Shown piece by piece: positions 22,192 through 53,259 of a DNA stretch of 64,000 nt. The notes beneath the pieces are model-generated. The model had not been told where the DNA came from. It did no database searches and saw only the letters and a program-made list of their open reading frames with translations. Source of the DNA: Ochrobactrum chromiisoli (GTDB lineage: Bacteria; Pseudomonadota; Alphaproteobacteria; Rhizobiales; Rhizobiaceae). Location: NCBI RefSeq assembly GCF_026241335.1, contig NZ_JAPHAV010000002.1, positions 62,001 to 126,000 of the forward strand, given 5' to 3'. The first letter of the stretch is position 1. Each line of letters begins with the position of its first letter. The position numbers and the translations under genes were made by a program.

Positions 22192-22198
22192 TTTGCAC

Positions 22199-31929: not shown

Positions 31930-31992
31930 CTCATGCTCCTTCGGATGCCGGCACTCCGGCAAAATAAACTATTATTTCAACCGATTGGCGGA

Positions 31993-33546: not shown

Positions 33547-33553
33547 GACTGAA

Positions 33554-34273: not shown

Positions 34274-34927
34274 ATGAGTACACAAGCTAATCAAGTTTCA
34301 CAGAAACCCGCCAAAATGAACCGCGCAACCCTTTGGAGTGTGGTTGCTGCGGTTGTGGTTATCGGTGCAATTGGTTTTGATACGAAAGTTGTGAAGATCG
34401 GATCTGATGCCGATGTCCGTCAGCAGGTTTTCTCACCTGAAGCTTATGGCGCGTCGGAATTTCCGAAGGTCAAGGCAAGCGTTGTAGAACGTGCAGTTGA
34501 TGCTGTCGAAGTTGGTGCTGCCCTTGTTGCTGACAAGGTTGCGGCTGGCAAGAAATACGGTGTTGGCAGCGTGAACCCGGTTATCCCGGTCAAGTTCACG
34601 GGCACAGTCGAAGAGCGCAAGTCGAACTTTAACGTCATCAAGGTTGATGGTTTCCCCGAAGGCATGGCAATTCGTGTTCAGACCGGTCCGGCTGTCAACG
34701 GCACCGATCTGCGAGATGCAACCGGCACAATCGAATTCGGTCAGTTTAAGAACCAGATTGAGTTCCAGAATGCCGGTTCCGCGCTCAACAATGAGATGAA
34801 GAAGCAGGTTCTCGAAGGCGTTGATGTTGACAATCTCGTCGGCAAGACGGTTTCGGTCACGGGCGTTTTCAAGCTTGTCAACCCGAAGAACTGGCTGGTT
34901 ACGCCAGTGGAATTGCAAGTAAAATGA
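34274..34927 (+). CDS. DUF2291-family protein of the sugar ABC operon (EryE-like)
   Basis: A 217-residue protein with one N-terminal membrane segment (LWSVVAAVVVIGAIGFDTKVV) followed by a periplasmic domain. It matches the DUF2291 family, whose genes nearly always sit next to ribose-type ABC transporters, including the Brucella erythritol transporter genes (eryE). FTGTVEERKSNFNVIKVDGFPEGMAIRVQTGPAVNGTDLRDATG is the conserved core. Its stop overlaps the ATPase start (ATGA). Function is unknown; a role in transporter assembly or ligand delivery is a guess. It starts with ATG, three codons after a TTG. Confidence 0.85.
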   Translation: MSTQANQVSQKPAKMNRATLWSVVAAVVVIGAIGFDTKVVKIGSDADVRQQVFSPEAYGASEFPKVKASVVERAVDAVEVGAALVADKVAAGKKYGVGSVNPVIPVKFTGTVEERKSNFNVIKVDGFPEGMAIRVQTGPAVNGTDLRDATGTIEFGQFKNQIEFQNAGSALNNEMKKQVLEGVDVDNLVGKTVSVTGVFKLVNPKNWLVTPVELQVK

Positions 34928-36465: not shown

Positions 36466-36488
36466 AATAATTATGGAGCACTGATAGA

Positions 36489-37529
36489 ATGTCAGTCACG
36501 AGCACCAACGACAAAAAGGCGGCGTCCACCGGGACAAAGCGCAAAACCAGCATCGTGCATTTGCTGCTCGAAGGCCGTGCGTTCTTTGCGTTGATTGCGA
36601 TCATCGCAGCCTTCTCGTTCCTCTCGCCTTATTACTTTACCGTCAATAACTTCCTGATCATGTCGTCGCATGTGGCCATTTTTGGCCTTTTGGCGATTGG
36701 TATGCTGCTGGTTATCCTCAACGGCGGCATCGATCTTTCGGTCGGTTCCACATTGGGGCTTGCGGGCGTTGTTGCCGGCTTTCTCATGCAGGGCGTCAAT
36801 ATTCCTGAGCTGGGCGTGATCCTCTATTTCCCGGTCTGGGCGGTTGTTATCATTACCTGTGCACTGGGTGCATTTGTTGGTGCCATCAACGGGGTCCTGA
36901 TCGCTTATCTACGCGTTCCGGCCTTCGTGGCGACGCTTGGTGTGCTTTATTGCGCACGCGGCGTAGCGCTTCTGATGACCAATGGTCTGACCTACAACAA
37001 TCTCGGTGGCCGTCCTGAACTCGGCAATACCGGTTTTGACTGGCTTGGCTTCAACACGCTTTTTGGTGTGCCGATTGGCGTTCTGGTGCTTGCTGTTCTG
37101 GCAATCATCGTTGCAGTCGTGCTCAATCGCACCGCATTTGGCCGCTGGCTCTATGCTTCGGGTGGCAATGAACGTGCAGCCGAACTTTCGGGTGTTCCAG
37201 TCAAGCGCGTGCAGATTTCGGTCTATGTGATTTCGGGTATTTGTGCTGCAATCGCTGGTCTGGTTCTGTCTTCGCAGCTGACTTCGGCTGGTCCGACCGC
37301 AGGTACAACATACGAATTGACGGCAATCGCCGCAGTCGTGATCGGTGGCGCTGCGCTGACGGGTGGTCGCGGTACAATTCTGGGCACGCTTCTGGGTGCA
37401 TTTGTTATCGGCTTCCTTTCCGATGGCCTCGTGATCATCGGTGTATCGTCCTACTGGCAGACTGTCTTTACCGGCGCGGTTATCGTGCTCGCGGTTCTGC
37501 TCAACAGCATTCAATATTCCCGACGTTGA
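36489..37529 (+). CDS. sugar ABC transporter, permease (RbsC-like)
   Basis: A 346-residue permease of the ribose/xylose type with about ten membrane segments. Family landmarks are LLAIGMLLVILNGGIDLSVGSTLGLAGVV near residue 75, VPAFVATLGVLYCARGVALL, and the EAA-like LYASGGNERAAELSGVPVKRVQISVYVISG. It probably forms a homodimer channel. Follows the ATPase by 23 bases; a GC-rich hairpin lies in the 156-base gap before the binding-protein gene. Confidence 0.93.
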   Translation: MSVTSTNDKKAASTGTKRKTSIVHLLLEGRAFFALIAIIAAFSFLSPYYFTVNNFLIMSSHVAIFGLLAIGMLLVILNGGIDLSVGSTLGLAGVVAGFLMQGVNIPELGVILYFPVWAVVIITCALGAFVGAINGVLIAYLRVPAFVATLGVLYCARGVALLMTNGLTYNNLGGRPELGNTGFDWLGFNTLFGVPIGVLVLAVLAIIVAVVLNRTAFGRWLYASGGNERAAELSGVPVKRVQISVYVISGICAAIAGLVLSSQLTSAGPTAGTTYELTAIAAVVIGGAALTGGRGTILGTLLGAFVIGFLSDGLVIIGVSSYWQTVFTGAVIVLAVLLNSIQYSRR

Positions 37530-37535
37530 TGGTTA

Positions 37536-37565
37536 CGGCTCCGTCCACCGTTCCGGGCGGAGCCG
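37536..37565 (+). promoter_or_regulatory. intra-operon hairpin before the binding-protein gene
   Basis: CGGCTCCG (37536-37543) and CGGAGCCG (37558-37565) form a perfect 8-bp stem just after the permease stop. No T-run follows. It probably shapes mRNA processing between membrane and binding-protein genes. Confidence 0.55.
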
Positions 37566-37685
37566 GTTCTTCGGGGGTAGCGAAAACTTTCCAAGACGGC
37601 GACCACATTTAAAAGTCTCGCCCATTGGAAGTGGTAACGCCGGGAAACCGGTATAACTCAATGATAATTGTTACGGGAGTGAGAC

Positions 37686-38633
37686 ATGTTTAAGAAGGGT
37701 ATGCGCGTTCTGTTTGCTGCTGCTGCAGCATTGCCGCTAATCGCCAGCACCGCATGGGCTGAAGGTCTGATTTCAATCGTGGTCAACGATCCTTCGAACC
37801 CATACTGGTACACCGAAGGTGAAATCGCCAAGAAAACCGCTGAAGGCCTCGGCTATTCGGCTGTTGTTGGCGGCCACAAGGGTGACACCAACACCGAAAG
37901 CAACCTGATCGACACCGCAATTACCAACAAGTCTGTTGCGATCATTCTCGACCCGGCAAATGCTGATGGTTCGGTCGGTGCGGTCAAGCGCGCTGTTGCC
38001 GCTGGCATTCCAGTGTTTCTGGTAAACGCTGAAATCAACCAGGAAGGCTTGGCTAAAGCTCAGCTCGTTTCAAACAACGCACAGGGTGCAGCACTTGGTG
38101 CAACGCAGTGGGTTGAGAGCGTTGGTGAAGAAGGCAAGTATGTTGAGCTGTTCGGTTCGCCGTCAGACAACAATGCTGCCACGCGTTCGAACGGCTATGA
38201 AACAGTTCTTTCGCAGTATCCTGACCTCGTAAAGGTTGGTCAGGACGTTGCGAACTGGAACCGTACGCAGGGTCACGACAAGATGCAGGCTCTGCTTCAG
38301 GCAAACCCGGACATCATCGGCGTTATCTCGGGTAACGACGAAATGGCTCTTGGTGCAATCGCTGCTCTGAAAAAGGCTGGCAAGCTTGATCAGGTCAAGG
38401 TTGGTGGTTTCGACGGTTCGCCAGATGCCGTTGCTGCGATCAAGGCTGGTGAACTGCAGTACACCGTTCTGCAGCCAGTTGCGATCTTCTCGGAAGCTGC
38501 TGTCAAGCAGGCCGACAACTTCATCAAGACTGGCAAGACCGGCGTTGACCAGGAAAAGCAGCTTTTCGATTGCTTCCTGATCACCAAGGACAATGTTGAC
38601 AAGTACACTGCTCCATTCGTTCTGGAACAGTAA
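37686..38633 (+). CDS. sugar ABC transporter, substrate-binding protein (RbsB-like)
   Basis: A 315-residue periplasmic protein of the ribose/galactose family (periplasmic binding protein domain 4). The signal peptide ends at AWA-EGLISIVVND. The first lobe includes SNPYWYTEGEIAKKTAEGLGYSAVV and the hinge region VISGNDEMALGAIAALKKAGKLDQVKVGGFDGSPDAVAAIKAG. A ribosome site TTACGGGAGTGAGAC precedes the ATG. The ligand is probably a four- or five-carbon polyol or sugar; erythritol is likely from context, and apiose cannot be excluded. Confidence 0.93.
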   Translation: MFKKGMRVLFAAAAALPLIASTAWAEGLISIVVNDPSNPYWYTEGEIAKKTAEGLGYSAVVGGHKGDTNTESNLIDTAITNKSVAIILDPANADGSVGAVKRAVAAGIPVFLVNAEINQEGLAKAQLVSNNAQGAALGATQWVESVGEEGKYVELFGSPSDNNAATRSNGYETVLSQYPDLVKVGQDVANWNRTQGHDKMQALLQANPDIIGVISGNDEMALGAIAALKKAGKLDQVKVGGFDGSPDAVAAIKAGELQYTVLQPVAIFSEAAVKQADNFIKTGKTGVDQEKQLFDCFLITKDNVDKYTAPFVLEQ

Positions 38634-38684: not shown

Positions 38685-38747
38685 AGTACCGATGCTATGA
38701 ATCGGGACCGGTCAATACATTGAGCGGGCTGGGGACGAGTGGTAAGC

Positions 38748-39596
38748 ATGGTTACAAGCAACAAAGCAAGCATTGATAGCCTTCTGACTGAGCAGGTGCC
38801 GAATGACAGCAGGCACGCACGTCAGTTGGTTCGCCGCCAGCAAATTGCAGAATTGATTATGTCGGAAGGGTCGGTGCGGATTGAAGATCTGACCGAGCGT
38901 TTCGCAATCAGCCTTATGACCGCACATCGTGATGTGGACGAACTGGTCAGTCGCGGCCTGTTTCGTAAATCACGCGGTATCGTTTCCGCTGCACCCACAA
39001 GCCTCATTGAAGCAAGCGATCTTTATCGCGTCGCCCGTCAGTCTGAAGAGAAGAAACTGATCGCCGAAGCCGCGATGCAGTTTGTTGAGCCGGGTCAGGC
39101 CATTTTCTTTGACGACTCTACAACCGTTCTACAGATGGTGCCTTATCTGCCGGAAAAGGGGCCATTGACCGTTATCACCAATTCACTGATCCTGATGAAC
39201 GAAGTGCGTGACATGAAAGATGTCACGCTGCTCGGTCTCGGCGGTCAGCTTTATAACTGGTGCAACGCCTTTGTTGGTGGGATGACGATTCATGAAATCC
39301 GCCGTCTGCGTGCGGATGTGGCTTTTATTTCGATTGCTGCAATTACCGATGATCTGCTGTTCCACCAATCACCGGAAATGATCGAAACAAAGCGCGCTAT
39401 GCTTGAATGTGCGGCAAAGCGCGTGCTCTTGACCGATCACACGAAGTTCGAGCGCAGGGCGCTGCATAATTTTGGTGCATTGAAAGATTTCGATGTCGTT
39501 ATCGTTGATGACAAGACATCGCTTGAACACATTGAGCGAATGCAATCGCAGAACATCAATGTGGTTATCGCCGGTTCTGGCGGAACGAAAGAATAA
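38748..39596 (+). CDS. DeoR-family transcriptional regulator
   Basis: A 282-residue regulator. The DeoR helix-turn-helix is VRIEDLTERFAISLMTAHRDVDELVSRGLFRKSRG near residues 40-75 and the sugar-phosphate sensor domain contains FFDDSTTVLQMV, ITNSLILMNE and DVAFISIAAITDD. It carries an N-terminal extension of about 25 residues before RRQQIAELIMSEG. The ATG at 38748 was chosen; a GTG three codons upstream, nearer GGGGA, is possible. It leads the kinase/dehydrogenase pair and probably regulates it. It is a distant paralogue of EryR. Confidence 0.88.
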   Translation: MVTSNKASIDSLLTEQVPNDSRHARQLVRRQQIAELIMSEGSVRIEDLTERFAISLMTAHRDVDELVSRGLFRKSRGIVSAAPTSLIEASDLYRVARQSEEKKLIAEAAMQFVEPGQAIFFDDSTTVLQMVPYLPEKGPLTVITNSLILMNEVRDMKDVTLLGLGGQLYNWCNAFVGGMTIHEIRRLRADVAFISIAAITDDLLFHQSPEMIETKRAMLECAAKRVLLTDHTKFERRALHNFGALKDFDVVIVDDKTSLEHIERMQSQNINVVIAGSGGTKE

Positions 39597-39644
39597 GCCG
39601 GAAGGCTTCAGAATTTAGCGCATATATATCAGGAAATACGATCC

Positions 39645-41159
39645 ATGCCGTCTCTGTTGGGAATTGATAGCGGACTGACCGTCACCAAGGCCGTTATATT
39701 TGACGTTGATGGGACGACGCTTGCCGTCGCCCGTCGCCGTGTACCCCAATATTTTCCAAAACCGCGCCATGTTGAGCGTGACATGGACGAATTCTGGAAT
39801 GCAACTGCGGATGCGATTGCCGAAGCGCTTTCAAAAAGCGGACGCCCTGCCTCTGACATCCTCGCTATTGCCACCACGGCCCATGGCGATGGCATCTACA
39901 TGCTTGATAAGGACCAGCGTCCACTTGGCAAGGGCATTCTGTCGCTGGATAGCCGTGCCGTTGACGTGGCTGAGCGCTGGGTAAACAGCGCTGTTGCAGA
40001 GCAGTCAATTGCGATCACTGGTCAACTGCCACACGCGTCTGCTCCTTCCGCCATTCTGGCCTGGGTCAGGGAAAATGAGCCTGAACGTTACGCACGTATC
40101 GGCCATGTGATTGCATGCAAGGACTGGCTGCGTTTCTGCCTGACGGGTGAAGTCGGCACTGACCGCACTGAAGCATCGACGTCTTTTACCGATTACAAAA
40201 CACAGGATTATTCGCAGGACGCGCTTAAACTTTTCGGCCTCGAAGCACTTTGGGATGCGCTGCCGCGCATGTCGCGTTCAGATGAAATCGTGGGTGGTGT
40301 TTCGCAAGGCTGCGCAAACCGTACCGGGCTTGTTGCTGGAACACCTGTTGTTGGCGGCCTGCATGATGTGACCGCTTCTGCGCTGGGTGTCGGTGGTCTC
40401 AAGATTGGTACAGTTGCAGTTGTCGCCGGGACCTACTCGATCAATGAAACGCTGTCGTCGAAGCCCAATATCGATAAGAGCTGGTTCTGCCGCAATGGGA
40501 TTGCGCCGGGTGAGTGGAACAACATGTCCATTTCGCCTGCTTCGACCGCAAATTATGACTGGTTTCTTGACAAGCTCTGCCCGGCTGAACGTCGTGAAGC
40601 GGAAGAAACAGGACGCTCAATTCATGACATGCTGAGGCCAGAAATCGACGCAGCATTGGCTAAGCCTTCAACGGCTTTGTTCCACCCTTATCTGTTCGGA
40701 TCACCTTACGGTGCGATGGCGAGCGGCGCGTTCTTTGGTCTGCGTGGCTGGCAGGAACGTGGCGATATGCTGCGTGCAGTCTGGGAAGGCATTGCTTTTA
40801 ACCACCGCATCCATGTCGATCATTTGAAAGATGGTTTTGAAATCTCGAGCGCCCGTCTGACGGGCGGCGTGTCGCGCAGTCCTTCATTTGCGCAGATGTT
40901 TGCCAATGTGCTGGGTATGCCGGTCACTGTCACCGATACGGATGAAGCAGCAGCATGGGGGGCTGCACTTTGTGCAGGCAAGGGTGCAGGCGTTTTCGCC
41001 GACGTTTACAGCGATCCGCGCGATCTTGATGCGATTGGCCGGACCTATATCCCCGATGCTGCGCGCAGCGAACAATATGAAAAGCGCTATGCCTTGTTCA
41101 AGGAAATCGCATCCGCGATGGGGCCGATCTGGTCCAAAATTGATGCGCTTACAGATTAG
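39645..41159 (+). CDS. FGGY-family carbohydrate kinase (LyxK/EryA-like)
   Basis: A 504-residue kinase of the FGGY family. N-terminal phosphate loop LLGIDSGLTVTKAVIFDVDG, IATTAHGDGIYMLDKDQRPLGKGILSLDSRA near residue 85 as in xylulokinase/L-xylulose kinase-like proteins, and the C-terminal RLTGGVSRSPSFAQMFANVLGMPV. Substrates of the group are sugars and polyols. The next gene is a GlpD-type dehydrogenase, the same logic as EryA-EryB: phosphorylate a polyol, then oxidise the phosphate. The polyol is unknown; threitol, ribitol or arabitol would fit. Confidence 0.88.
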   Translation: MPSLLGIDSGLTVTKAVIFDVDGTTLAVARRRVPQYFPKPRHVERDMDEFWNATADAIAEALSKSGRPASDILAIATTAHGDGIYMLDKDQRPLGKGILSLDSRAVDVAERWVNSAVAEQSIAITGQLPHASAPSAILAWVRENEPERYARIGHVIACKDWLRFCLTGEVGTDRTEASTSFTDYKTQDYSQDALKLFGLEALWDALPRMSRSDEIVGGVSQGCANRTGLVAGTPVVGGLHDVTASALGVGGLKIGTVAVVAGTYSINETLSSKPNIDKSWFCRNGIAPGEWNNMSISPASTANYDWFLDKLCPAERREAEETGRSIHDMLRPEIDAALAKPSTALFHPYLFGSPYGAMASGAFFGLRGWQERGDMLRAVWEGIAFNHRIHVDHLKDGFEISSARLTGGVSRSPSFAQMFANVLGMPVTVTDTDEAAAWGAALCAGKGAGVFADVYSDPRDLDAIGRTYIPDAARSEQYEKRYALFKEIASAMGPIWSKIDALTD

Positions 41160-41262
41160 AGCGCATCCCGAAAAGTGTAAAACGGTTTTCGGATAAAGAT
41201 GCGCGTTAAGACAATGATTTAGAGCGCCGATCTGATTCAGTTAGATCGAAATGCGCTCTAAA
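41158..41262 (+). repeat. interspersed palindromic repeat (Rhizobiales type)
   Basis: The stretch combines GAGCGCATCCCGAAAAGTGT...ACGGTTTTCGG and TTTAGAGCGCCGATCTGATTCAG...GAAATGCGCTCTAAA, each a long imperfect hairpin. A second, inverted copy of the first half occurs at 49580-49622. Elements with these sequences are scattered through Brucella and related genomes. It lies between the kinase and dehydrogenase genes and may affect mRNA stability. Confidence 0.8.
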
Positions 41263-41281
41263 AGACAGCGAAGACAGTGAA

Positions 41282-43009
41282 ATGAACGATTTCGTAAACA
41301 GTGCCCAAATGAAGAACCGCATCAGCCAACTCGAAGCTGACGGTGTTGATGTGCTTATTCTGGGCGCGGGTATCAATGGCGCGGGGCTCTATCGCGACTT
41401 GAGTGAACAGGGCGTAAGCTGTTTCATCGTTGATAAGGGCGACTTTGGCTCCGGCACGAGTGCGGCCCCTTCGCGCCTTATTCACGGTGGCCTCAAATAT
41501 CTTGAAACCGGTGAATTCGGTCTTGTGGCTCAATCAACCGTCGAGCGCAATATATTGCTCAAAAATGCGCCGCATAATGTCCGTCCGCTACCGACATTCA
41601 TTCCGGTTTTCTCCTGGACGAAGGGCATCACCGCAGCACTTCGTACTCTGTTTGGCTCGACAACTGCGCCACGCAGTCGTGGTGCCGTGCTGATCAAAAT
41701 CGGCCTTGGTCTTTACGATTATTTTGGTGCGCGCGAGCGCGTTATGCCAAAGCACAATTTTCTTTTGAAAAAGAGTGCTTTGAAAGAAATGCCTTATATG
41801 ACGCCGTCAATCGTTGGCGGTGGCATTTATTATGACGCATGGGTCAGTAAGCCGGAACGTTTGGTTTATGAGCTGATCAGCGATGGTTTGAAGGCCAATT
41901 CGAAAAGTGCGGCAGCGAATTTCACGGCCATTGTTGCGGCCGCAGACGGCGCAGTGAGTTTTGAAGGGCCGGATGGCGCGCAATTCACGGTTAAGCCAAA
42001 AATCGTCATCAACGCGGCCGGTCCATGGATCGATCATGTTAATGCGGCGCTTGGTAAAGAAACCAAGATGATCGGCGGAACGAAGGGTTCGCATATCCTC
42101 GTTGACCACCCTGAACTGGTCAAAAGCCTAAAGGGTCGCATGATCTACTTTGAGGCGGATGATGGTCGTATCTGCCTTGTCTATGATTATCACGGTCTTG
42201 CGCTGGTCGGTTCAACGGATATTCCGGCAAACAACCCGGATGAGGTTTTCGCGGAAGACAAGGAAATCGATTACTTCATCGAGAGCCTGCGTTCGCTGCT
42301 GCCGAAGCTGAAATTCGATCGCAGCCAGATCGTCTATACCTATAGCGGCATTCGCCCGCTGCCTGCCTCCAATGCGTCGGAGCCGGGCCTTATCAGCCGT
42401 GACCACTCCGCACCGGTTATTGAGCCGGATGCAGGCCGTCCGTTTGCGATTATTTCGCTGGTCGGCGGCAAGTGGACGACGTTCCGCGGCTTTGCGGAAG
42501 AAGTGGCAGACACGGTGCTCAAGCGCTTTGGCCGCGAACGTCTCAAATCAACCAGAACTCTGACCATCGGCGGCGGCAAGGACTACCCGGCAGATGACCG
42601 TGCGCGCACCGCATGGGTGGCAAAATACGCCAAGGAAACCGGGCTTGCAGTCGAACGTGTCGAGACACTTTTGCAGCGTTATGGCACAACGGCATTGCCA
42701 ATCATTCAGGACGAAGCCAAAGTTGGCGTTACGCTTTTGCCTGATACCGACAGTATCAGCCGTGCGGAAATTGCGTGGATCGCGCGTAATGAACTGGTTG
42801 TGCATCTCTCAGACGTTGTTCTGCGACGGACAACGCTGGCGATTGATGGCGCGCTGTCGAACGCCAATCTCGCAGCAATCGCCGATATTCTCAGTGTTGA
42901 GTTTGGTTGGGATGCTACGCGCAAGGCGCAGGAGCTTGAGCTTGTGATTGCCGAGCTCTCAAAGCGTCACGGGATGACGCTTGGCGAGCAGCCAGCAAAA
43001 CGCCGTTAA
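41282..43009 (+). CDS. GlpD-type FAD-dependent polyol phosphate dehydrogenase
   Basis: A 575-residue protein of the glycerol-3-phosphate dehydrogenase family. The FAD site is VLILGAGINGAGLYRDLSEQG near residue 24, and the GlpD signature APSRLIHGGLKYLETGEFGLVAQSTVERN follows near 65. GGKWTTFRGFAEEVADTVL and a C-terminal helical domain (residues about 430-560) are as in longer GlpD proteins. It is a paralogue of EryB (502 residues) with a different C-terminus. It pairs with the FGGY kinase upstream. Glycerol 3-phosphate as substrate is also possible, but the paired kinase is not a typical glycerol kinase. Confidence 0.88.
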   Translation: MNDFVNSAQMKNRISQLEADGVDVLILGAGINGAGLYRDLSEQGVSCFIVDKGDFGSGTSAAPSRLIHGGLKYLETGEFGLVAQSTVERNILLKNAPHNVRPLPTFIPVFSWTKGITAALRTLFGSTTAPRSRGAVLIKIGLGLYDYFGARERVMPKHNFLLKKSALKEMPYMTPSIVGGGIYYDAWVSKPERLVYELISDGLKANSKSAAANFTAIVAAADGAVSFEGPDGAQFTVKPKIVINAAGPWIDHVNAALGKETKMIGGTKGSHILVDHPELVKSLKGRMIYFEADDGRICLVYDYHGLALVGSTDIPANNPDEVFAEDKEIDYFIESLRSLLPKLKFDRSQIVYTYSGIRPLPASNASEPGLISRDHSAPVIEPDAGRPFAIISLVGGKWTTFRGFAEEVADTVLKRFGRERLKSTRTLTIGGGKDYPADDRARTAWVAKYAKETGLAVERVETLLQRYGTTALPIIQDEAKVGVTLLPDTDSISRAEIAWIARNELVVHLSDVVLRRTTLAIDGALSNANLAAIADILSVEFGWDATRKAQELELVIAELSKRHGMTLGEQPAKRR

Positions 43010-43017: not shown

Positions 43018-43048
43018 AAAAAAAACGGGCCAACGGCCCGTTTTTTAT
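43018..43048. terminator. bidirectional terminator
   Basis: A-run, ACGGGCC-AAC-GGCCCGT, T-run, between the convergent dehydrogenase and apionolactonase genes. It overlaps the last codon of the latter. Confidence 0.9.
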
Positions 43049-44871
43049 TTGCTCAATGATTGCACGCCATAGGGTGCTAAAGTTATTGCCTCACCGCCTG
43101 CAATGACCACGGCCTGTTCATGGGATGTAATATTAACAAGCCAGACCTTATCTTCTACGGCAACCGCAAGAACGTCCGATGGACGTGAAGACTGGCACAA
43201 TTGGAAGTTTTTCCCGGCAAGCTGCGAAAGCACTTTTACGGCGTTGAACAACGGACGCTTGTCACCCCTAGCTGTTGGCTCGTTGTCATCTGCAATAAGT
43301 CCGAACGGGCCGGTGAGGGCCGAAAGTGTCAGGCTGTCAAGGCCAGCATTCAGCACCGAAATGGCATAGGCCATTGCAAAACTTTCAGCGAATTTTCCAT
43401 TATGGCGTGGGTCGCGATTGGCCATGGCAATGCGTTTACCATTCGGGTTGTCCATCGTTCTGCTGCCATAAGGGTTCTGGCGCATGGGGATGGTCGACGG
43501 CCCGATGCGATAGGGCTTGTCGCCGTAGATCGCCCGTACAGAACGGGTGATGAAAGGCAGTGCCTCCAATGTCTGCATGACGCTCAGATCGTCAGCGGCA
43601 TGAACAATCGGATTGGTGCAATGGGTGACGAAATCAATCAGGTCGCCCGGAACGCGCTTGCGATTAAGCTCGGTGAAATAGCTCAGCATTCCGCCGCCAA
43701 GCTTCATATTCGGAAAAGCTGTTTTTGCTGCCGCATAAACATCTTCAAGTGGCGGGCAGGGTGGCCATTCGCTGCCGGGCGGCGTGGACTGCCGGTCTAT
43801 CGCAGGTGAAACAATGACCGCATTCGGGTCAAAGCCAGCCGCTTCCATGTCAGAAGCAATTTGCTTCGTTTCATTTATAAGCGATTTCTCACAAGGCAAT
43901 GCAATTTCAAGAGAAATTCGTCCTTGATAGCTTGCTGCCAGGGCTGCAAAATCCGCAAAAGCCGAGCCTTTATGACCTGCCAGCGGGTCGTAATGAAATA
44001 ACAAATCCTGCGGGCCAGTTTCCTGCAACAGATCAATCGCGGCAAGGCTTGCTTTGGCTTCTTCCGGTGTGATGATAATACCGATATTCGGCATTTTGCC
44101 ACTTGTGTCACCAAGCGTAATGCTCACCGGCTTGGCATACCGGGTGGTATTTGGTCTCGCTGTGCGCGTGTCAGTAATGTTGAGCACAATGCGCTGATGC
44201 TGGGGTTTTAAGGCTTCGATCTGATAAGGCCATGGCAAAGCAAGCGGACGCACATAGGTCTTATAAGATGCATCGGACCAGTTGCGCTGATCTTCCATCT
44301 CAAACGTATCGCCTTCCATGCGGCACTCGGCTGAAACGCCTGGCATGGCCTCATGGGTGATCGCACGCATATCCTTGAAAGGCTGCCATGGCTCAATCAG
44401 ATCGGGTAGATGGGTTTTGTTGAGCGTACCATCGACATGCTCGACACTAATCGGCGAACCCGCAACGCCAACAATCGGATGCAGGATGCAAAAGCCGCAG
44501 CGATTGGTTTCAAAGCCTGTCATGCTATTGGTCAAAGCATCAAAAGCGAGCGTGCCGTCGTTCTCTGCCTGAATGCGAACATCAATGGTGAGCTGGGTCG
44601 CATCCGGCCCTTCGCAACGCGCCTGATAGGTGACGGTAAAGCCGGCTTCGGTCTGTTCGACGTTCAGATCGTGAATTACTGGACTGTAGGTTCCCCAGTC
44701 ACGATCCCGCACCAGATAGGAGATGCTACGCAGAACTTCAACGCCATCATATTGAATGGTGCGAAGGTTGCCATCGCTTAGATCAACCTCAAGCAGGCCC
44801 GCTTTTAAACGCTTCGGCTTAGCTTCTGCTTCACGCGTACCATAGAGCAGAAAAGGATCGATGTTGCTCAT
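43045..44871 (-). CDS. apnL: D-apionolactonase
   Basis: A 608-residue cytosolic protein that I match to ApnL, which hydrolyses D-apionolactone to D-apionate. The N-terminal 250 residues look beta-rich (GLLEVDLSDGNLRTIQYDGVEVLRSISYLVRDRDWGTY), the middle resembles a TIM barrel (DLLFHYDPLAGHKGSAFADF...LGGGMLSYFTELNRKRVP) and the end is a small beta domain. No common hydrolase motif is visible, so the assignment rests on overall sequence recognition and on the neighbours. Its start overlaps the apiose dehydrogenase stop by four bases (ATGA), which ties the two consecutive steps together. Confidence 0.77.
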   Translation of the reverse strand: MSNIDPFLLYGTREAEAKPKRLKAGLLEVDLSDGNLRTIQYDGVEVLRSISYLVRDRDWGTYSPVIHDLNVEQTEAGFTVTYQARCEGPDATQLTIDVRIQAENDGTLAFDALTNSMTGFETNRCGFCILHPIVGVAGSPISVEHVDGTLNKTHLPDLIEPWQPFKDMRAITHEAMPGVSAECRMEGDTFEMEDQRNWSDASYKTYVRPLALPWPYQIEALKPQHQRIVLNITDTRTARPNTTRYAKPVSITLGDTSGKMPNIGIIITPEEAKASLAAIDLLQETGPQDLLFHYDPLAGHKGSAFADFAALAASYQGRISLEIALPCEKSLINETKQIASDMEAAGFDPNAVIVSPAIDRQSTPPGSEWPPCPPLEDVYAAAKTAFPNMKLGGGMLSYFTELNRKRVPGDLIDFVTHCTNPIVHAADDLSVMQTLEALPFITRSVRAIYGDKPYRIGPSTIPMRQNPYGSRTMDNPNGKRIAMANRDPRHNGKFAESFAMAYAISVLNAGLDSLTLSALTGPFGLIADDNEPTARGDKRPLFNAVKVLSQLAGKNFQLCQSSRPSDVLAVAVEDKVWLVNITSHEQAVVIAGGEAITLAPYGVQSLSK

Positions 44872-45902
44872 TTGAGCAATGCCGTAATGTCGACGCGGTT
44901 GCCGCTCGCGGCACTTTCATAGGCGACTTCAACAAGCGCGAAAGTCTTGAGATTATCCGCGCCCGATGTGGAAGTTTCTTTGCCCGATGCGAGCTGCGCC
45001 ACCCAATGCTGCTGAATAGCAAAAACGCTTTCCTGAATATTGTGCCATGGACGTGAGGCCCATGAAAGCAGCTTTGGCGAAACGTCGGAAACCGTGGTGC
45101 CGTTTGGCGTTATCACTTCAAGGCGGTAGCCGTGATAAAGCCGGATAGAGCCTTTCTCGCCATCAAGTTCAATAAGTGTTTCCGGGAATGGATCTGTCTC
45201 CAGCTTGGTGGCGTAGCTCACATCGACAATAGAGGTTGCACCATTTTCATGGTCCATGAGAATGGTTGCTACGTCTTCGCCTTTGATCTTGGGGTTGACG
45301 CGCTTGGTGCGTGCGACAAGGCTGGTCACATCGCCCAGAATAAAGCGTGCAATATCAAGCGTGTGAATGCCTAAATCTTCGATGATAAAGCGTTCGCCCT
45401 CTGCAAGATAAGGTTGGCCGGAAAACACGTCGAAGCCGGAGCGGAAGGAGAAACGTCCCCAGAAAGGCGTGCCGATAGCGCCGCTATCAAGCGCCTTGCG
45501 TACCGCCTGAATAGGCGTCTGCCAGCGGAAGTTTTCATGGACCATCAGCGGAATACCCGCTTCATCGCAGATCTTCACCATGGCCTTTGCATCATCGAGC
45601 GTTTTGGCAAAAGGTTTCTGGCAGATTGCGGGTACCTTGTGGGCCGCTGCAAGCTCCACAAGAGCGCGATGGCTTGAAACTGTGGTGGCGATGTCGACAA
45701 AGTCGATGCCGCCATCTGCAAACAGCGCCTGCGCATCCGTGTAGCGACGTTCGATGCCAAACTGGTCGCCGACAATCTTCAAACGCTCAGGATCGCGGTC
45801 GCAGATCGCCACGATTTTGGCACCCAAGACGTCATTCCATGCATGCATCTGGTTGATTGCGAAGAAGCCGCAGCCGATCAGAGCGCCATTCAATTCTGCC
45901 AT
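44868..45902 (-). CDS. apsD: D-apiose dehydrogenase (Gfo/Idh/MocA family)
   Basis: A 344-residue NAD-dependent sugar dehydrogenase. The Rossmann site is ALIGCGFFAINQMHAWND at the N-terminus, the catalytic-lysine motif is ICQKPFAKTLDDAKAM near residue 95 (usually EKP), and FIIEDLGIHTLDIARFILGDV carries the active-site histidine near 180. D-apiose dehydrogenases that give apionolactone belong to this family and lie next to lactonase genes. It heads a two-gene operon with apnL. A GCAAAATTTGC palindrome is 67 bases upstream of the start. Confidence 0.8.
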   Translation of the reverse strand: MAELNGALIGCGFFAINQMHAWNDVLGAKIVAICDRDPERLKIVGDQFGIERRYTDAQALFADGGIDFVDIATTVSSHRALVELAAAHKVPAICQKPFAKTLDDAKAMVKICDEAGIPLMVHENFRWQTPIQAVRKALDSGAIGTPFWGRFSFRSGFDVFSGQPYLAEGERFIIEDLGIHTLDIARFILGDVTSLVARTKRVNPKIKGEDVATILMDHENGATSIVDVSYATKLETDPFPETLIELDGEKGSIRLYHGYRLEVITPNGTTVSDVSPKLLSWASRPWHNIQESVFAIQQHWVAQLASGKETSTSGADNLKTFALVEVAYESAASGNRVDITALLK

Positions 45903-45965
45903 TTACTGAACCTTTATCCTGCTTTTCGGGACATGCTCGTGTTCAATATTGGCGAAACTGCTGAA

Positions 45966-45983
45966 ATTGCAAAATTTGCGCAA
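45966..45983. promoter_or_regulatory. palindrome upstream of apsD, related to the eryA palindromes
   Basis: The core GCAAAATTTGC (45969-45979) is identical to the core of the palindrome at 33736 in front of eryA. It lies 67 bp upstream of the apsD ATG, a normal operator distance. It suggests common control of the erythritol and apiose genes, most simply by EryD. Confidence 0.6.
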
Positions 45984-46030
45984 TTTTCTGCATGTTTCCT
46001 CCCAAATCAAGCCTGTCTCCCAAACGGCTG

Positions 46031-46057
46031 AAAAAGGGAGGGCTAGCGCCCTCCCTC
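46031..46057 (-). terminator. rho-independent terminator of the oiaX-oiaK-apnO operon
   Basis: In minus-strand sense GGGAGGGC-GCTA-GCCCTCCC is followed by TTTTT, directly after the apnO stop. It separates this operon from apsD-apnL. Confidence 0.9.
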
Positions 46058-46064
46058 ATAGTAA

Positions 46065-46892
46065 TTACGTGATGCGACGGATGCTTTCTGCGATTTCTTC
46101 CGGCTCAAAAACGTTCTTCCAGTCGTCACGCATCAGCGCAGGAATACCGAATTCGATTGCCTTGTTGCAGGCATCGGAGAACACGCCCTGGACTTCGCCA
46201 AAGATGACGGCGCCAAGAACATTCATGTGGCCGAGCAGGAAGTCGCGCGCTGCTTCTTCAGGAACGCCGCGACGAACGCATTCGTCCATGGCCTGCTTCA
46301 TCACAACCAGAAGCGATGCGCAAACGGTTTCCGAAAGACCTGGCTCGAGAATTGCAAGCTGCTCGACGGTGACGCGGTGCGAACGCATGACGGGTGCCCA
46401 GATGACCTTGGCGATTTCTTCACCCAGTGCATAAGCTTCTTCCGGGCCCTGCATCAGGGCTGAAACGATGTGCTGCTTGGCAAACAGACCGCCGAAGTGG
46501 TCTTTCTTTGCCTGCATGTCGGTTTCGTCGTTGAAGATTGGTGGATGGCAAGGATGGGTCACGAAATAGGTGAGGTCTGCGCGTTCCGGCAGGTGACCGG
46601 CAAATGGTGCGGCTGCATCGAGTGCAATAACCATCGTGCCGGGCTTGAGCTTGTCAACAATGCCTGCTGCAACTTTACCGATGATGGTATCTGGCACAGC
46701 CAGAATGACGACGTCTGCGCCTTCCAGACCTGCATCCGCATCAATGGTGTCGATGCCGAGTTCGTTTTTCAGGCGTTCCTTACCGGCGTCGCTGACTTCG
46801 ATGTGACGAACGTCAAAGCGCGAACCTTTGAGGTTCTTGGCCAGACGGTAGCCCATCTTGCCGCCCGCTCCAAACAAAGCGATAGCTGTCAT
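46065..46892 (-). CDS. apnO: D-apionate oxidoisomerase
   Basis: A 275-residue NAD-dependent enzyme with a Rossmann start (IALFGAGGKMGYRLAKNLKGS) and a phosphogluconate-dehydrogenase-type C-terminal domain (SETVCASLLVVMKQAMDECVRRGVPEEAARDFLLGHMNVLGAVIFGE). This architecture is that of ApnO, which oxidises and rearranges D-apionate to 3-oxo-isoapionate. The ATG is preceded by GGAAGGAAATACAATT; upstream residues in the longer frame are not conserved in type. It follows oiaK after 65 bases and ends at a strong terminator. Confidence 0.8.
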   Translation of the reverse strand: MTAIALFGAGGKMGYRLAKNLKGSRFDVRHIEVSDAGKERLKNELGIDTIDADAGLEGADVVILAVPDTIIGKVAAGIVDKLKPGTMVIALDAAAPFAGHLPERADLTYFVTHPCHPPIFNDETDMQAKKDHFGGLFAKQHIVSALMQGPEEAYALGEEIAKVIWAPVMRSHRVTVEQLAILEPGLSETVCASLLVVMKQAMDECVRRGVPEEAARDFLLGHMNVLGAVIFGEVQGVFSDACNKAIEFGIPALMRDDWKNVFEPEEIAESIRRIT

Positions 46893-46957
46893 AATTGTAT
46901 TTCCTTCCCGTAGTTTTGGTATCCAACTGGCATAACCAGTCAATGAGTCTTCCAGTT

Positions 46958-48295
46958 TCACGCGGTCAAGCCATCGCGAATCTGGCTGAAATATCCGTCA
47001 GAACCGACCTGACCGCCCTTGAGAGCAATCTGGAGGCCGTTGGTGGCGGCGTGAGCGCCGTGCGCCGTGCAAAGCGGCGACCCCGGTGTTTGTGGAAGCG
47101 GCAGAAGCGTGGTGAGTGCATCGACGTGCAATTCACGCAATGCGTGGCTGGACGTATCGCCGCCGGCAATGACCGCGCGGGTAAGCTGTTCGCGCTCGAC
47201 AAGGCTGCGGAGGATGAAGCCGAGGCTGCGCGCCAGTTTGTGGCGGCTGCCTGCGATCTTGTCGATTTCTACACCGCGATCAGCCGAAGGGCCGAGCGCC
47301 GTGTTGAGGATCACGCTGTTGCCTTGCTTGAGCGCCTTCTGGCCTTCTGCAATGGCGGTTTCGATAGCCTGAGCACTGTTTTCGCCGATAATATCGAGCG
47401 GATTGAGATCAATGCCGGTAAAGCCGGAAGCGGTCGCGTGGCGGATCTGGCGCTCGGTGGTTGGTGACACGCTGCCTGAAACGACCGCAATGCGGTCCGC
47501 CTTTCCGGGAAGCGCAAACTCTTTCTTCGCACCGATCAGCCCGGCTTTGGCCCATGCAGTCAGAAGCGCATATTCAACGCCTGACGAGCCAGCAACAAAC
47601 CAGCCCGCATCAGGACGCAAACGCCAAAGCTGTTCGCCCGCCTGCAACTGGCTTTCGTGGCTGTCGACGTCAAGCAGCAACATGCCGTCAGCATTTTTGG
47701 CAATCGCATCCAAGCGGTCATTCGCATCGGCGGCTGAAAGCGCTACGAGGTCCGCAAGCACGGTTTTTAGTGCTGTCTGCTGTGCCAGATGGACGCGTAG
47801 GTCCGCCTCGTGCATTGGCGTCACGGGATGACGGCTCATGACCGGATGGCGGTCTATACGGTAGGTTTCACCCTGATAGGCGGCAAAGAGATTGCCGAAA
47901 GCGGTATATCGCTTGAGCTGTGGTGCGCCGACTATCAGCGGCACATAAGCCTGATTAAAGATCGCTTTGCCGATTTCCACGGCCTTGCCGATATTGCCTA
48001 CATGCGGTGCGGAATCGAATGTCGAGCAGACCTTGTAATGGGCAATCGCAGCATTCAGGCTTTTCAGCCAGTTGAATGCAGGCGTGAGATGTTCCTGCAT
48101 CCATTCCGGCGTTTCGCTGCGGCTGGTGCCTGCAAGGCCGATGGCTTTGCAATGGGAAAAGCGTGACAGAAGCTTTTCATCCGGTACATTCATGAAAAGC
48201 ACAGTGTCAACGCCGTTGGAAGCCATGGCTTCCATAACGTCGGTCGAGCCGGTGAGGTCGTCGCCATAATAGGACAGGAGAAGATTGTTCGTCAT
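46958..48295 (-). CDS. oiaK: 3-oxo-isoapionate kinase (four-carbon acid sugar kinase family)
   Basis: A 445-residue kinase of the former DUF1537 family. The N-terminal domain has LLSYYGDDLTGSTDVMEAMASNGVDTVLF and KVCSTFDSAPHVGNIG, with the catalytic aspartates in GDDLTG; the C-terminal nucleotide domain has VAVVSGSVSPTTERQI-like sequence and VIAGGDTSSHAL. Family members phosphorylate sugar acids. With ApnO and a RuBisCO-like protein adjacent, OiaK is the best fit: 3-oxo-isoapionate to its 4-phosphate. Its ATG shares one base with the oiaX stop (TAATG), so the two are translationally coupled. Confidence 0.82.
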   Translation of the reverse strand: MTNNLLLSYYGDDLTGSTDVMEAMASNGVDTVLFMNVPDEKLLSRFSHCKAIGLAGTSRSETPEWMQEHLTPAFNWLKSLNAAIAHYKVCSTFDSAPHVGNIGKAVEIGKAIFNQAYVPLIVGAPQLKRYTAFGNLFAAYQGETYRIDRHPVMSRHPVTPMHEADLRVHLAQQTALKTVLADLVALSAADANDRLDAIAKNADGMLLLDVDSHESQLQAGEQLWRLRPDAGWFVAGSSGVEYALLTAWAKAGLIGAKKEFALPGKADRIAVVSGSVSPTTERQIRHATASGFTGIDLNPLDIIGENSAQAIETAIAEGQKALKQGNSVILNTALGPSADRGVEIDKIAGSRHKLARSLGFILRSLVEREQLTRAVIAGGDTSSHALRELHVDALTTLLPLPQTPGSPLCTAHGAHAATNGLQIALKGGQVGSDGYFSQIRDGLTA

Positions 48296-49551
48296 TATTC
48301 GCCTCCTTTCCCGAACTTATCGAGCGAGGCTGCAAGCTCAGGATGGTTCGTGGCATAGGTTTCAAGAGGGATGCCAGCGACTGCTGCTTCCCATGCCTGC
48401 TGCACGGCACGAACACCAGCTGCCGGGCCACCCGGATGACTGACAATGCCGCCGCCGCAAAGATAAAGAAGGTCCGTCGTGCGACCTGTGCGCTCATAGG
48501 TTTCAGGTGCCTGTCCGCCCCACTGGCCGGAACCTGCCACAGGCAGCGGGCAATCGGTCGGGTCGAACAGCGGCGTGCTGACAGCCTTGAACGAATTGAC
48601 GAAGCTTTCGTCCGGCTCCCAGTATTTCACGCGGATGCCGTTGATCTGGAACTGATCGACGCCGAGCAGGCGCCAGAACTGCTGATAGACGCGGAAATCC
48701 ATGCCAGTGCCGGGATTGCGGGTCAGGATGTCCCAGCCGTTACGGTGCGCATGTAGCACAAGACCGGAACGCTTGCGCAGGAAGCTCATGCCGCCAAAAC
48801 CGACGGAGTTGATGTTGACAACCGCGCAATTACCGCCAGCCTCCAGCACCATGTCATGATTGCGCATCATCTCATCAGGATCGGCGTGTGAAATGCCGAA
48901 AGCATACATAACTTTCTTGCCGGTCTTCTGCTCGTGATTGAGAATAAGCGGCATGATCGCTGCAATGCGCTCTTTAAGTGGCGAATAGGCAGGGCTCATC
49001 AGCTTTTCATCATCCTTGATGAAATCGACGCCGGATTCGATCAGTTCACCGACGAGTTCTGCGGTCTCATGCGGACGCAGGCCGAGTGCTGGCTTAACGA
49101 TAGTGCCAATGATTGGGCGCTTTTCAACGCCTGTCAGACGGCGGCTTCCGGCTATGCCGAATTGCGGGCCGGGATGCGCGCCCTTGAAAGCTTCCGGCAG
49201 CTTCATGTCGATCACGCGGATGCCGGTCATGCCCTTGATCGAGTAAACACCGCCAACGGCAATCGTCATCAGCGCTGCAAGGTCGGTGCCGATCGCATCG
49301 AGCGGAAAAGCAATGTCCACATCAGCACGCTTGATAGGGCCGTGTCCGGGTTCAAGCTCTGGCCAGGCTGGAACTGTTGCGTCTTCAAGGGGGCGGATTT
49401 CCAACACACGCGCTGCAACGCGGGCTTTTAATTCTTCCGTTTCACCGGGGAGGGCGACAAAAGTGCCGGTCGACTGATCGCTGGCGATTTTGGCGGCCAT
49501 CTTTTCGATGCTGCCGGTTGTCTCAATGCGATAGGTCAGACAGATGTTCAT
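48295..49551 (-). CDS. oiaX: RuBisCO-like protein, 3-oxo-isoapionate-4-phosphate decarboxylase
   Basis: A 418-residue RuBisCO large-subunit homologue that is not a carbon-fixing enzyme. The carbamylated-lysine/metal motif is kept (GVDFIKDDEKL), as are the substrate lysine in GTIVKPALGLRP (the second lysine of the usual KPKLG is alanine) and a loop-6-like lysine in INGIRVKYWE. Genes of this kind next to DUF1537 kinases include OiaX, which releases CO2 from 3-oxo-isoapionate 4-phosphate to give L-erythrulose 1-phosphate; OiaT-type hydrolases are the alternative. The start MNICLTYRIE was chosen because the longer frame runs through an interspersed repeat. Confidence 0.85.
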   Translation of the reverse strand: MNICLTYRIETTGSIEKMAAKIASDQSTGTFVALPGETEELKARVAARVLEIRPLEDATVPAWPELEPGHGPIKRADVDIAFPLDAIGTDLAALMTIAVGGVYSIKGMTGIRVIDMKLPEAFKGAHPGPQFGIAGSRRLTGVEKRPIIGTIVKPALGLRPHETAELVGELIESGVDFIKDDEKLMSPAYSPLKERIAAIMPLILNHEQKTGKKVMYAFGISHADPDEMMRNHDMVLEAGGNCAVVNINSVGFGGMSFLRKRSGLVLHAHRNGWDILTRNPGTGMDFRVYQQFWRLLGVDQFQINGIRVKYWEPDESFVNSFKAVSTPLFDPTDCPLPVAGSGQWGGQAPETYERTGRTTDLLYLCGGGIVSHPGGPAAGVRAVQQAWEAAVAGIPLETYATNHPELAASLDKFGKGGE

Positions 49552-49734: not shown

Positions 49735-49753
49735 TGGTATAATGAGTATTCCA
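49735..49753. promoter_or_regulatory. candidate GntR-family operator
   Basis: TGGTATAATGAGTATTCCA, an imperfect palindrome between the divergent oiaX and gntR genes. FCD-type GntR regulators often use TGGTnnnnnACCA-like sites, and autoregulation from this position is common. Confidence 0.45.
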
Positions 49754-49865: not shown

Positions 49866-50570
49866 ATGAACAAGCCCATAGAACCCATCGTTCGCCGCAA
49901 GTTATCTGACGAAGTTTTTGACCGGCTCGAAAACATGATTACGTCTGGCGAATTGACGCCCGGCGATGAAATGCCGTCTGAACGCGTGCTGATGGAGCGT
50001 TTTGGTGTGGGCCGCCCGGCGATCCGCGAGGCGATGCAGTCACTTGCCAAGATGGGGCTGGTCAGCATTTCGCATGGCGAGCGTGCAAAGGTGTTAAAGC
50101 TCACTGCGAGGTCTATCTTTCAGCAGGTTGATCCTACAGCGAAAATTATGCTCGCTCAATCGATTGATACGCTGGAGCATCTCAAGAGTGCGCGTATCTT
50201 TTTTGAACGCGGTATTGCCCGTGAAGCTGCCCTTAAAGCGAGCGATAAGGACATTGCCGATCTTCGTGCGATCGTCGAGCGGCAGCGGGAATCGTTGGGC
50301 GATGCGGATGCATTCATTTCAGCCGATATGGAGTTTCATATCCGTATTGCGAAAATATCCGGCAATCCGATTTTTGTAGCGGTGAGCGAGTCTATGCTGT
50401 CCTGGCTGCGCGAATATCACACTCATATGCTGATTTGGACGGGTAAGGAAAACTACACGCTGGTCGAGCATGAAGAAATTCTTGATAGTATCGCTAAACG
50501 AGACCCGGATGCTGCGGAAGGTGCCATGCTTCATCACCTTGAACGTTCGAGGGGCTTATATACAAAATAG
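49866..50570 (+). CDS. GntR/FCD-family transcriptional regulator
   Basis: A 234-residue regulator. The winged helix is at residues 10-75 (LSDEVFDRLENMITSGELTPGDEMPSERVLMERFGVGRPAIREAMQSLAKMGLV) and the helical FCD effector domain follows (SARIFFERGIAREAALKASDKDIADL, MEFHIRIAKISGNP), with metal-ligand histidines in EFHIRI and HEEILDSI. It resembles NanR-type proteins. It is divergent from oiaX, so it most likely represses the apionate genes and is released by an acid-sugar intermediate. Confidence 0.9.
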   Translation: MNKPIEPIVRRKLSDEVFDRLENMITSGELTPGDEMPSERVLMERFGVGRPAIREAMQSLAKMGLVSISHGERAKVLKLTARSIFQQVDPTAKIMLAQSIDTLEHLKSARIFFERGIAREAALKASDKDIADLRAIVERQRESLGDADAFISADMEFHIRIAKISGNPIFVAVSESMLSWLREYHTHMLIWTGKENYTLVEHEEILDSIAKRDPDAAEGAMLHHLERSRGLYTK

Positions 50571-51823: not shown

Positions 51824-51852
51824 GTCGATGCTTTCCAGATATTTGAAACAGA

Positions 51853-53238: not shown

Positions 53239-53259
53239 CGGGCAATTCCTTATGTAAGT

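What the first reader, a model, noticed from the sequence alone, without database searches (positions are those of the whole stretch)
43045..49551. D-apiose pathway placed beside erythritol genes and sharing their intermediate
Five genes fit apiose to apionolactone, apionate, 3-oxo-isoapionate, its 4-phosphate, and by a RuBisCO-like enzyme to L-erythrulose 1-phosphate plus CO2. That product is the same compound as the L-3-tetrulose 4-phosphate made by EryB, so EryC-EryH-EryI would finish both routes. I know of no report of the two loci acting as one unit.
Basis: partly seen in the sequence, partly recalled or inferred. Interest (0 to 1): 0.72.

Follow-up and report, generated by a model that had tools for sequence, protein, structure and literature searches.

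The report
Apiose operon leaning on erythritol isomerases

Summary
Five minus-strand genes at 43045-49551 form the oxidative D-apiose operon of the RuBisCO-like decarboxylase type: OiaX and ApnL pass their NCBIfam cut-offs; the other three fit by family and place (the kinase misses the OiaK cut-off). The erythritol locus lies at 24-43 kb.

The interpretation needs a correction. EryB's product, L-3-tetrulose 4-phosphate, is D-erythrulose 1-phosphate: the mirror image of OiaX's L-erythrulose 1-phosphate. OiaX's product equals EryC's. Apiose should need EryH and EryI but bypass EryC.

Genomes agree. Of 80 oiaX genomes, 21 carry an own EryH+EryI pair in the apiose operon, and 12 of these lack eryC. 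Of 57 with neither gene in the operon, 56 have eryC and 55 a close EryH. oiaX lies within 25 kb of eryC in 9 of 40 genomes with both (about 0.4 expected). No shared operator was found: linked by metabolism, not one regulatory unit. The window's operon has also lost its ABC importer by an old deletion (five Rhizobium loci lack it too), yet stays under purifying selection.

Enzymes known; the dependency I did not find in print (the key 2018 paper could not be read).

The parts
43045..44871 (-). ApnL, D-apionate lactonase
   Evidence: NCBIfam NF049900 1044.8 bits, cut-off 750
44868..45902 (-). Gfo/Idh/MocA dehydrogenase, proposed D-apiose dehydrogenase ApsD
   Evidence: Pfam GFO_IDH_MocA; orthologues of 78-95% in 79 of 80 OiaX loci (L030 is cut off); no NCBIfam model over its cut-off
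45903..46064 (-). Scar of a deleted four-gene sugar ABC importer cassette (SBP, DUF2291 protein, ATPase, permease)
   Evidence: Leader of the SBP gene and 3' end of the permease gene still recognisable; a stretch shared with G021's scar is absent from the five intact relatives tested; cassette present there in relatives
46065..46892 (-). Rossmann + PGDH_C protein, proposed D-apionate oxidoisomerase ApnO
   Evidence: PF16896 243 bits; start moved to the methionine of MTAIALFG; orthologues of 84-98% in 79 of 80 loci (not L072)
46958..48295 (-). Four-carbon acid sugar kinase, proposed 3-oxo-isoapionate kinase OiaK
   Evidence: Best family NF042436 OiaK 474 bits but below cut-off 700; the R. etli CFN 42 operon kinase scores the same, 473
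48295..49551 (-). OiaX, RuBisCO-like 3-oxo-isoapionate-4-phosphate decarboxylase
   Evidence: NF042437 788.4 bits, cut-off 700; nearest solved chain 3nwr, 358 bits, KDDE motif aligned
49735..49753 (.). Inverted-repeat operator TGGAATACTCATTATACCA between gntR and oiaX (TGGNATA-N5-TATNCCA)
   Evidence: Present in 78 of 81 gntR-oiaX gaps, no second copy in 80 loci, one exact copy in the window
49866..50570 (+). GntR/FCD regulator of the NanR subfamily, proposed regulator of the apiose operon
   Evidence: NF003011 355 bits, cut-off 260; divergent from oiaX at 75-92% identity in 80 of 80 loci
26366..26821 (-). [quoted passage not shown]
   Evidence: NF051858 256 bits, cut-off 240
26833..27603 (-). 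EryH (TIM paralogue), L-erythrulose-1-phosphate isomerase: proposed entry point of the apiose product
   Evidence: TIM family; layout as BAB2_0367; name of the B. abortus protein in PMC12542623
29481..30413 (-). EryC, D/L-erythrulose-1-phosphate epimerase: proposed NOT needed for apiose
   Evidence: Xylose-isomerase-like barrel; place in the ery operon; function of EryC; no NCBIfam match
30421..33567 (-). EryB (30421-31962, GlpD type) and EryA (31993-33567, FGGY kinase), erythritol-specific steps
   Evidence: Families, layout
34268..38633 (+). Erythritol-type ABC importer (DUF2291 protein, ATPase, permease, SBP)
   Evidence: SBP about 50% identical to the apiose-type SBP
38739..43009 (+). DeoR regulator, second FGGY kinase, second GlpD-like dehydrogenase: tail of the ery locus in the seven other genomes of the genus that were fetched, role unknown

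Best explanation
43045-49551 is a working D-apiose/apionate operon: apiose -> apionolactone (ApsD) -> apionate (ApnL) -> 3-oxo-isoapionate (ApnO) -> its 4-phosphate (OiaK) -> L-erythrulose 1-phosphate + CO2 (OiaX). The operon encodes no enzyme for the last product. In this genome it is taken over by EryH (to D-erythrulose 4-phosphate) and EryI (to D-erythrose 4-phosphate) of the erythritol locus; EryA, EryB and EryC are bypassed. Many Rhizobium operons solve the same problem with their own EryH+EryI pair. Shown by sequence: gene families, layout, complementary distribution, repeated juxtaposition, separate operator. Inferred: each catalytic step here, and the flux through EryH-EryI. Recalled, not seen in a call: that OiaX's product has the L configuration. 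Uptake in this genome is unknown, because the operon's own importer genes are gone.
For: OiaX and ApnL equivalog cut-offs met. A Rhodobacteraceae strain with a cluster named as the same five enzymes grows on D-apiose as sole carbon source (PMC11747546, passage). 21 of 80 OiaX loci hold an EryH+EryI pair between oiaK and apnO, with no eryC there; the R. etli CFN 42 pair is a TIM and a protein passing the DerI cut-off, 257.9 against 240. eryC is absent from 12 of 21 genomes with the pair, 0 of 2 with eryI alone, 1 of 57 with neither (Fisher p 6e-8 for 12/21 against 1/59, not corrected for kinship). A close EryH (65% or more) is in 78 of 80. In a draw of 247 genomes of the family eryC is in 40 of 47 with oiaX and 18 of 200 without (p 7e-25, not corrected for kinship). 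oiaX and eryC lie within 25 kb in 9 of 40 genomes, 7 of 23 genera; expected about 0.4.
Against: No growth, flux or enzyme data here. The kinase misses the OiaK cut-off. L078 has oiaX but neither eryC, nor an EryH above 33%, nor the pair; L009, a 3.1 Mb MAG, has eryC but no EryH above 40%; in the family draw 4 of 47 oiaX genomes (G073, G109, G118, G263) have no EryH above 55%. 9 of 21 genomes with the pair keep eryC too, as they would if they also use erythritol. The kinship-controlled comparison of pair and eryC loss has only 5 well-supported contrasts: 4 agree, 0 oppose, 1 shows no difference, p 0.125. Within the genus oiaX and eryC co-occur only weakly beyond eryC's own ubiquity (26 of 26 against 6 of 9, p 0.013) and 12 of 26 oiaX genomes do not have the loci side by side. 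EryH and EryI were not counted in genomes without oiaX. The importer loss leaves entry of apiose unexplained.
Confidence: 0.8

Rival explanations
1. One reading: OiaX's product is EryB's product, and EryC, EryH and EryI all finish the apiose route.
For: All 26 oiaX genomes of the genus also have eryC, and 40 of 47 in the family draw. If OiaX made D-erythrulose 1-phosphate, EryC would be needed.
Against: Stereochemistry (names). In-operon sets hold EryH+EryI without eryC (21 of 21); 12 of those 21 genomes lack eryC altogether. In E. coli EryC proved necessary with aldolases that make D-erythrulose 1-phosphate, and the authors reason that a source of the L form would not need it; their two L-form candidates did not support growth, so that half is untested (PMC10733421, passages). 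Co-occurrence of eryC is explained because it travels with eryH and eryI in the ery locus.
Confidence: 0.08
2. The neighbourhood is coincidence or hitch-hiking of two plant-sugar loci, and L-erythrulose 1-phosphate is handled by housekeeping TpiA/Rpi or an aldolase.
For: Convergent genes and no shared operator; 12 of 26 genus members have the loci apart; L078 has no close EryH and a class II aldolase-SDR protein 6.5 kb away.
Against: Own EryH+EryI pairs inside the operon, and their complementary distribution with the ery locus; juxtaposition in 7 of 23 genera.
Confidence: 0.07
3. In this species the operon no longer serves D-apiose brought in by its own importer but apionate or another related acid, or apiose brought in by an unrelated importer; the downstream steps remain. 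(Overlaps with the best explanation, so the odds need not add up to one.)
For: The operon's ABC importer is deleted and no second apiose-type SBP is found in the genome, while the catabolic genes stay intact under purifying selection, dN/dS 0.02-0.13 between the two genomes that share the deletion. Five Rhizobium loci also lack the cassette.
Against: apsD and apnL, which act before apionate, are kept too; apnL's dN/dS of 0.13 is close to the 0.09-0.12 of the other pairs. No replacement importer was identified.
Confidence: 0.3

Closest known systems
Oxidative D-apiose pathway with RuBisCO-like decarboxylase (ApsD-ApnL-ApnO-OiaK-OiaX), Carter et al. 2018, Agrobacterium radiobacter K84 (known to me here through passages of PMC6302742 and PMC11747546 and recall; the 2018 paper is not held)
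   Same: All five gene families; gene order and divergent GntR gene as in R. rhizogenes NBRC 13257 (L015). The K84 record itself was not looked at
   Different: The operon here lacks the ABC importer cassette and has no own EryH/EryI; it sits beside the ery locus
R. etli CFN 42 plasmid p42f operon RHE_RS26630-RHE_RS26580 (NC_007766.1; its SBP is PDB 4ry0/5ibq)
   Same: Same operon, OiaX 86.5% identical
   Different: Carries a TIM and a DerI-type RpiB between kinase and ApnO, and the importer
Brucella-type erythritol locus (eryABCD-eryR-eryH-eryI with ABC importer), BAB2_0364-0378 (PMC3522698) and Geddes et al. 2013 (PMC3599248)
   Same: Same genes and order at 24-38 kb
   Different: Here an apiose operon follows; the word apiose occurs in neither paper
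M. smegmatis LerI/DerI tetritol route and the synthetic EuMP module (PMC10733421, passages)
   Same: L-erythrulose 1-phosphate -> D-erythrulose 4-phosphate -> D-erythrose 4-phosphate
   Different: Fed there by a kinase or aldolase, here by a RuBisCO-like decarboxylase

Membership tests
D-apiose operon of the OiaX (RLP decarboxylase) type | OiaX over the NCBIfam equivalog cut-off | tested here: met
   788.4 bits against 700
D-apiose operon of the OiaX (RLP decarboxylase) type | ApnL over the NCBIfam equivalog cut-off | tested here: met
   1044.8 bits against 750
D-apiose operon of the OiaX (RLP decarboxylase) type | Five enzyme genes together in one operon with a divergent GntR regulator | tested here: met
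D-apiose operon of the OiaX (RLP decarboxylase) type | Cognate apiose-type ABC importer (a usual, not defining, companion) | tested here: not met
   Deleted here and in G021; SBP present at 89% or more in the other 24 of 26 oiaX genomes of the genus; in 74 of 80 named loci, missing in L018, L032, L034, L035, L070 and out of view in L030
D-apiose operon of the OiaX (RLP decarboxylase) type | Turnover of apiose, apionate and 3-oxo-isoapionate 4-phosphate | not testable with these tools
   No assay
NCBIfam OiaK equivalog | Score over cut-off 700 | tested here: not met
   474 bits; the R. etli operon kinase 473. So the kinase is called OiaK by place in the operon, not as a member of this model
Erythritol locus, Brucella/R. 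leguminosarum type | eryABCD, eryR, tpiB/eryH, rpiB/eryI and eryEFG-type importer in one locus | tested here: met
   layout
[quoted passage not shown]
   Window EryI 256; R. etli in-operon RpiB 257.9
One regulatory unit (apiose + ery) | Shared operator or co-transcription | tested here: not met
   Operator once per locus, in front of oiaX only; none in the eight fetched ery stretches without oiaX; the two weaker window matches (3 mismatches) are at chance level; convergent transcription

The most novel reading that the evidence does not exclude
A composite tetrose island: in this species and in G021 the apiose operon has shed both its ends and leans on the erythritol locus for entry as well as exit, with the ery-type ABC importer (34268-38633) now also bringing in apiose or apionate and EryH-EryI finishing it.
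Probability: 0.1. Interest if true: 0.65.

Novelty: new variant of a known kind. Interest (0 to 1): 0.45.

Why it matters
It turns a metabolic map into sharp predictions: the apiose route needs EryH and EryI but not EryC, and genomes mostly either keep a private EryH-EryI pair or keep the erythritol locus. It gives the isomerases of the erythritol locus a second, plant-derived input, offers a possible reason why such pairs occur outside ery loci, and shows an operon that outlived the loss of its own importer.

Tried and rejected
Rejected: identity of OiaX and EryB products (and passages). Rejected: co-regulation by the oiaX operator, which occurs in none of the eight fetched ery stretches that lack oiaX. 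Disfavoured: apiose import through the ery-type importer. At ribose-binding-protein contact positions (E. coli numbering and roles recalled) 73 of 74 apiose-type SBPs keep F15, D89 and R90 (one gap) and 64 of 74 F16 (9 Y, 1 gap), while 8 of 8 ery-type SBPs have Y, N, A and W; positions 13, 164, 190, 215 and 235 agree in both types; positions 64 and 141 were not found by that script. The ery-type SBP changed very little where the cassette was lost (dN 0.003-0.006), so no sign of a new task.

The Foldseek run named 4ry0 as R. etli RHE_PF00037 'ribose transporter' SBP; that 5ibq is the D-apiose complex is recalled, not seen. Carter et al. 2018 and Barbier et al. 2014 are not held; that Carter et al. 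may already lead L-erythrulose 1-phosphate into such isomerases is my guess from recall, unchecked. Kinship-controlled test too small. Notebook entry 3 counted 15 side-by-side genomes in the genus; the right count is 14 of 26.
Full report
What is there. The window lies in a 4.65 Mb genome. The 12 nearest OiaX loci (L002-L013, 87-97% identical) are titled Brucella in 8 cases, most of them species I recall as former Ochrobactrum, and Ochrobactrum, Falsochrobactrum or unnamed Rhizobiales/Hyphomicrobiales in 4. Five minus-strand genes at 43045-49551 match the oxidative D-apiose pathway: ApnL and OiaX pass NCBIfam equivalog cut-offs, the kinase's best family is OiaK but under the cut-off, and the dehydrogenase and the PGDH_C protein fit ApsD and ApnO by family and place. 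A divergent NanR-type GntR gene lies at 49866. The nearest solved chain to OiaX is 3nwr, a RuBisCO-like protein. A gene cluster annotated with exactly these five enzymes goes with growth on D-apiose in a Rhodobacteraceae strain (PMC11747546, one passage). The erythritol locus fills 24-43 kb, in the layout printed for B. abortus (PMC3522698, passages).

Which step is shared. Turning the latter round to number from the phosphate end gives D-erythrulose 1-phosphate (R in both namings). OiaX's product is the S form, the compound EryC makes and EryH uses. PMC10733421 (passages) names EryC as D-erythrulose 1-phosphate 3-epimerase, leads L-erythrulose 1-phosphate through LerI and DerI, and says that an enzyme making the L form would do without EryC. 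PMC12542623 (passages) lists the B. abortus proteins under matching names, and the legend in PMC11508834 (passage) calls EryC a tetrulose-4-phosphate racemase and EryH a D-3-tetrulose-4-phosphate isomerase. That OiaX gives the L form is recalled.

Natural test. Of these, 21 carry EryH and EryI homologues between oiaK and apnO, 2 carry EryI alone, 57 neither; none of the 80 shows eryC inside the apiose operon (five loci are cut short by contig ends). Whole-genome searches: eryC is absent in 12 of 21, 0 of 2 and 1 of 57. EryH at 65% or more is in 78 of 80; the misses are L009, a 3.1 Mb MAG that has eryC, and L078, which has none of these genes. The 21 in-operon EryH proteins are 80% alike among themselves, 70% to nine ery-locus EryH; the histidine and glutamate motifs of TIM are kept in 30 of 30, the lysine of the first motif in 29 of 30. 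The R. etli in-operon RpiB passes the DerI cut-off like window EryI. On an OiaX tree the pair changes at least 7 times and eryC presence at least 8 times; of 5 well-supported independent contrasts 4 agree, 0 oppose and 1 shows no difference, too few for significance (p 0.125).

Co-occurrence and neighbourhood. In 247 genomes drawn from the family, oiaX is in 47, eryC in 58, both in 40 (about 11 expected; Fisher p 7e-25 without correction for kinship). Of the 7 oiaX genomes without eryC, 3 have EryH 1.4 kb from oiaX, 1 at 7 kb, 2 elsewhere, and 1 (G263) only a 53% TIM. oiaX and eryC are within 25 kb in 9 of 40 genomes, from 7 of 23 genera, against about 0.4 expected at random; 20 of the 40 have them on different contigs. 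Strands and order differ between genera (coordinates), and among the named loci L011, L014, L019, L040 and L045 have the ery operon directly upstream of gntR-oiaX, four of them with dhaKL between. In the window's genus, 26 of 35 genomes have oiaX and all 26 have eryC; 6 have eryC only and 3 neither (p 0.013); the two lie 17.9-22.9 kb apart in 14 of 26. In the seven other genomes fetched, the ery locus carries the importer-deoR2-fggy2-glpD2 tail; in the three of them where the apiose operon is adjacent it follows glpD2.

Lost importer. In 24 of 26 oiaX genomes of the genus an apiose-type SBP (89% or more) is found; G000 and G021 have only the roughly 50% ery-type one. In relatives a cassette of SBP, DUF2291 protein, ATPase and permease sits between apnO and apsD. 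The window and G021 keep the leader and start of the SBP gene and, in the window, the end of the permease gene; a stretch shared by both scars is not in the five intact relatives tested, so one old deletion is likely. Between these two genomes dS is 0.45-0.56 and dN/dS 0.02-0.13 for the five enzymes, in the range of pairs that keep the importer: the pathway is still selected. The loss is not unique: 5 of 80 named loci, all Rhizobium (L018, L032, L034, L035, L070), have only 126-205 bp between apnO and apsD, and L030 is cut off; on the best OiaX tree, much of it unresolved there, absence changes at least 5 times. Whether those strains hold the importer elsewhere was not searched. The R. etli operon SBP is identical to the crystallised 4ry0/5ibq. 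How substrate enters here is open; the ery-type SBP has a different pocket.

Regulation. TGGAATACTCATTATACCA or a near variant stands in 78 of 81 gntR-oiaX gaps (not in L013, L052, L078), once per locus, and not in the eight fetched ery stretches without oiaX. The resemblance to the NanR box GGTATA is recalled. This speaks for a private regulator and against one regulon.

Literature. Searches for apiose with erythrulose and RuBisCO-like, apionate with erythritol, apiose with catabolism and RuBisCO, apiose with erythritol and Rhizobium, apiose with Brucella, OiaX/OiaK/apionate terms, apiose with solute-binding protein, ABC transporter and R. etli, and apiose with catabolic pathway listed no paper that I could see joining the two loci (listings; passages only of the papers named here). 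PMC3599248 (Geddes 2013, passages) has no 'apiose'. The library is open-licence only, and Carter et al. 2018 could not be read, so absence from print is not claimed.

Verdict. Known pathway, correct neighbourhood, one stereochemical error that moves the junction from EryB/EryC to EryH, and a well-supported dependency that is easy to test in Rhizobium.

Noticed in passing
window 38739-43009: A DeoR regulator, a second FGGY kinase and a second GlpD-like dehydrogenase form the tail of the ery locus in the seven other genomes of the genus that were fetched; no substrate is known to me.
   Followed up: partly
window 20537-22308; L018, L032, L034, L070, L014, L019, L040, L045; L098 23038-23245: Dihydroxyacetone-kinase-type dhaK/dhaL genes lie near the ery locus here and next to apiose operons in several Rhizobium loci; a tetrulose kinase role is conceivable.
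   Followed up: no
L018, L032, L034, L035, L070, between apnO and apsD: Five Rhizobium apiose operons also lack the importer cassette, with short gaps that still resemble its two ends: repeated loss of the importer from a kept catabolic operon.
   Followed up: partly
L078 (Pararhizobium arenae), whole locus: Complete apiose operon with importer but no eryC, no close EryH, no in-operon pair and no conserved operator; an aldolase II-SDR fusion and a glycerol-3-phosphate dehydrogenase-like gene lie 5-9 kb upstream.
   Followed up: partly
PMC3599248 passage: Geddes 2013 reports a second eryR-tpiB-rpiB suboperon in S. fredii outside the ery locus; it might serve another tetrulose phosphate source such as apiose.
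   Followed up: no
window 50651-55414: Fe-alcohol dehydrogenase, aldehyde dehydrogenase, glutamine-synthetase-like and N-formylglutamate amidohydrolase genes in a row.
   Followed up: no
window 56450-62266: DNA photolyase, DUF1295, amine oxidase, DUF1365 and cyclopropane synthase-like genes in a row.
   Followed up: no
L072: Apiose operon rearranged: apnO not found in the locus, and the apnL, apsD and importer genes point the other way behind dhaLK.
   Followed up: no
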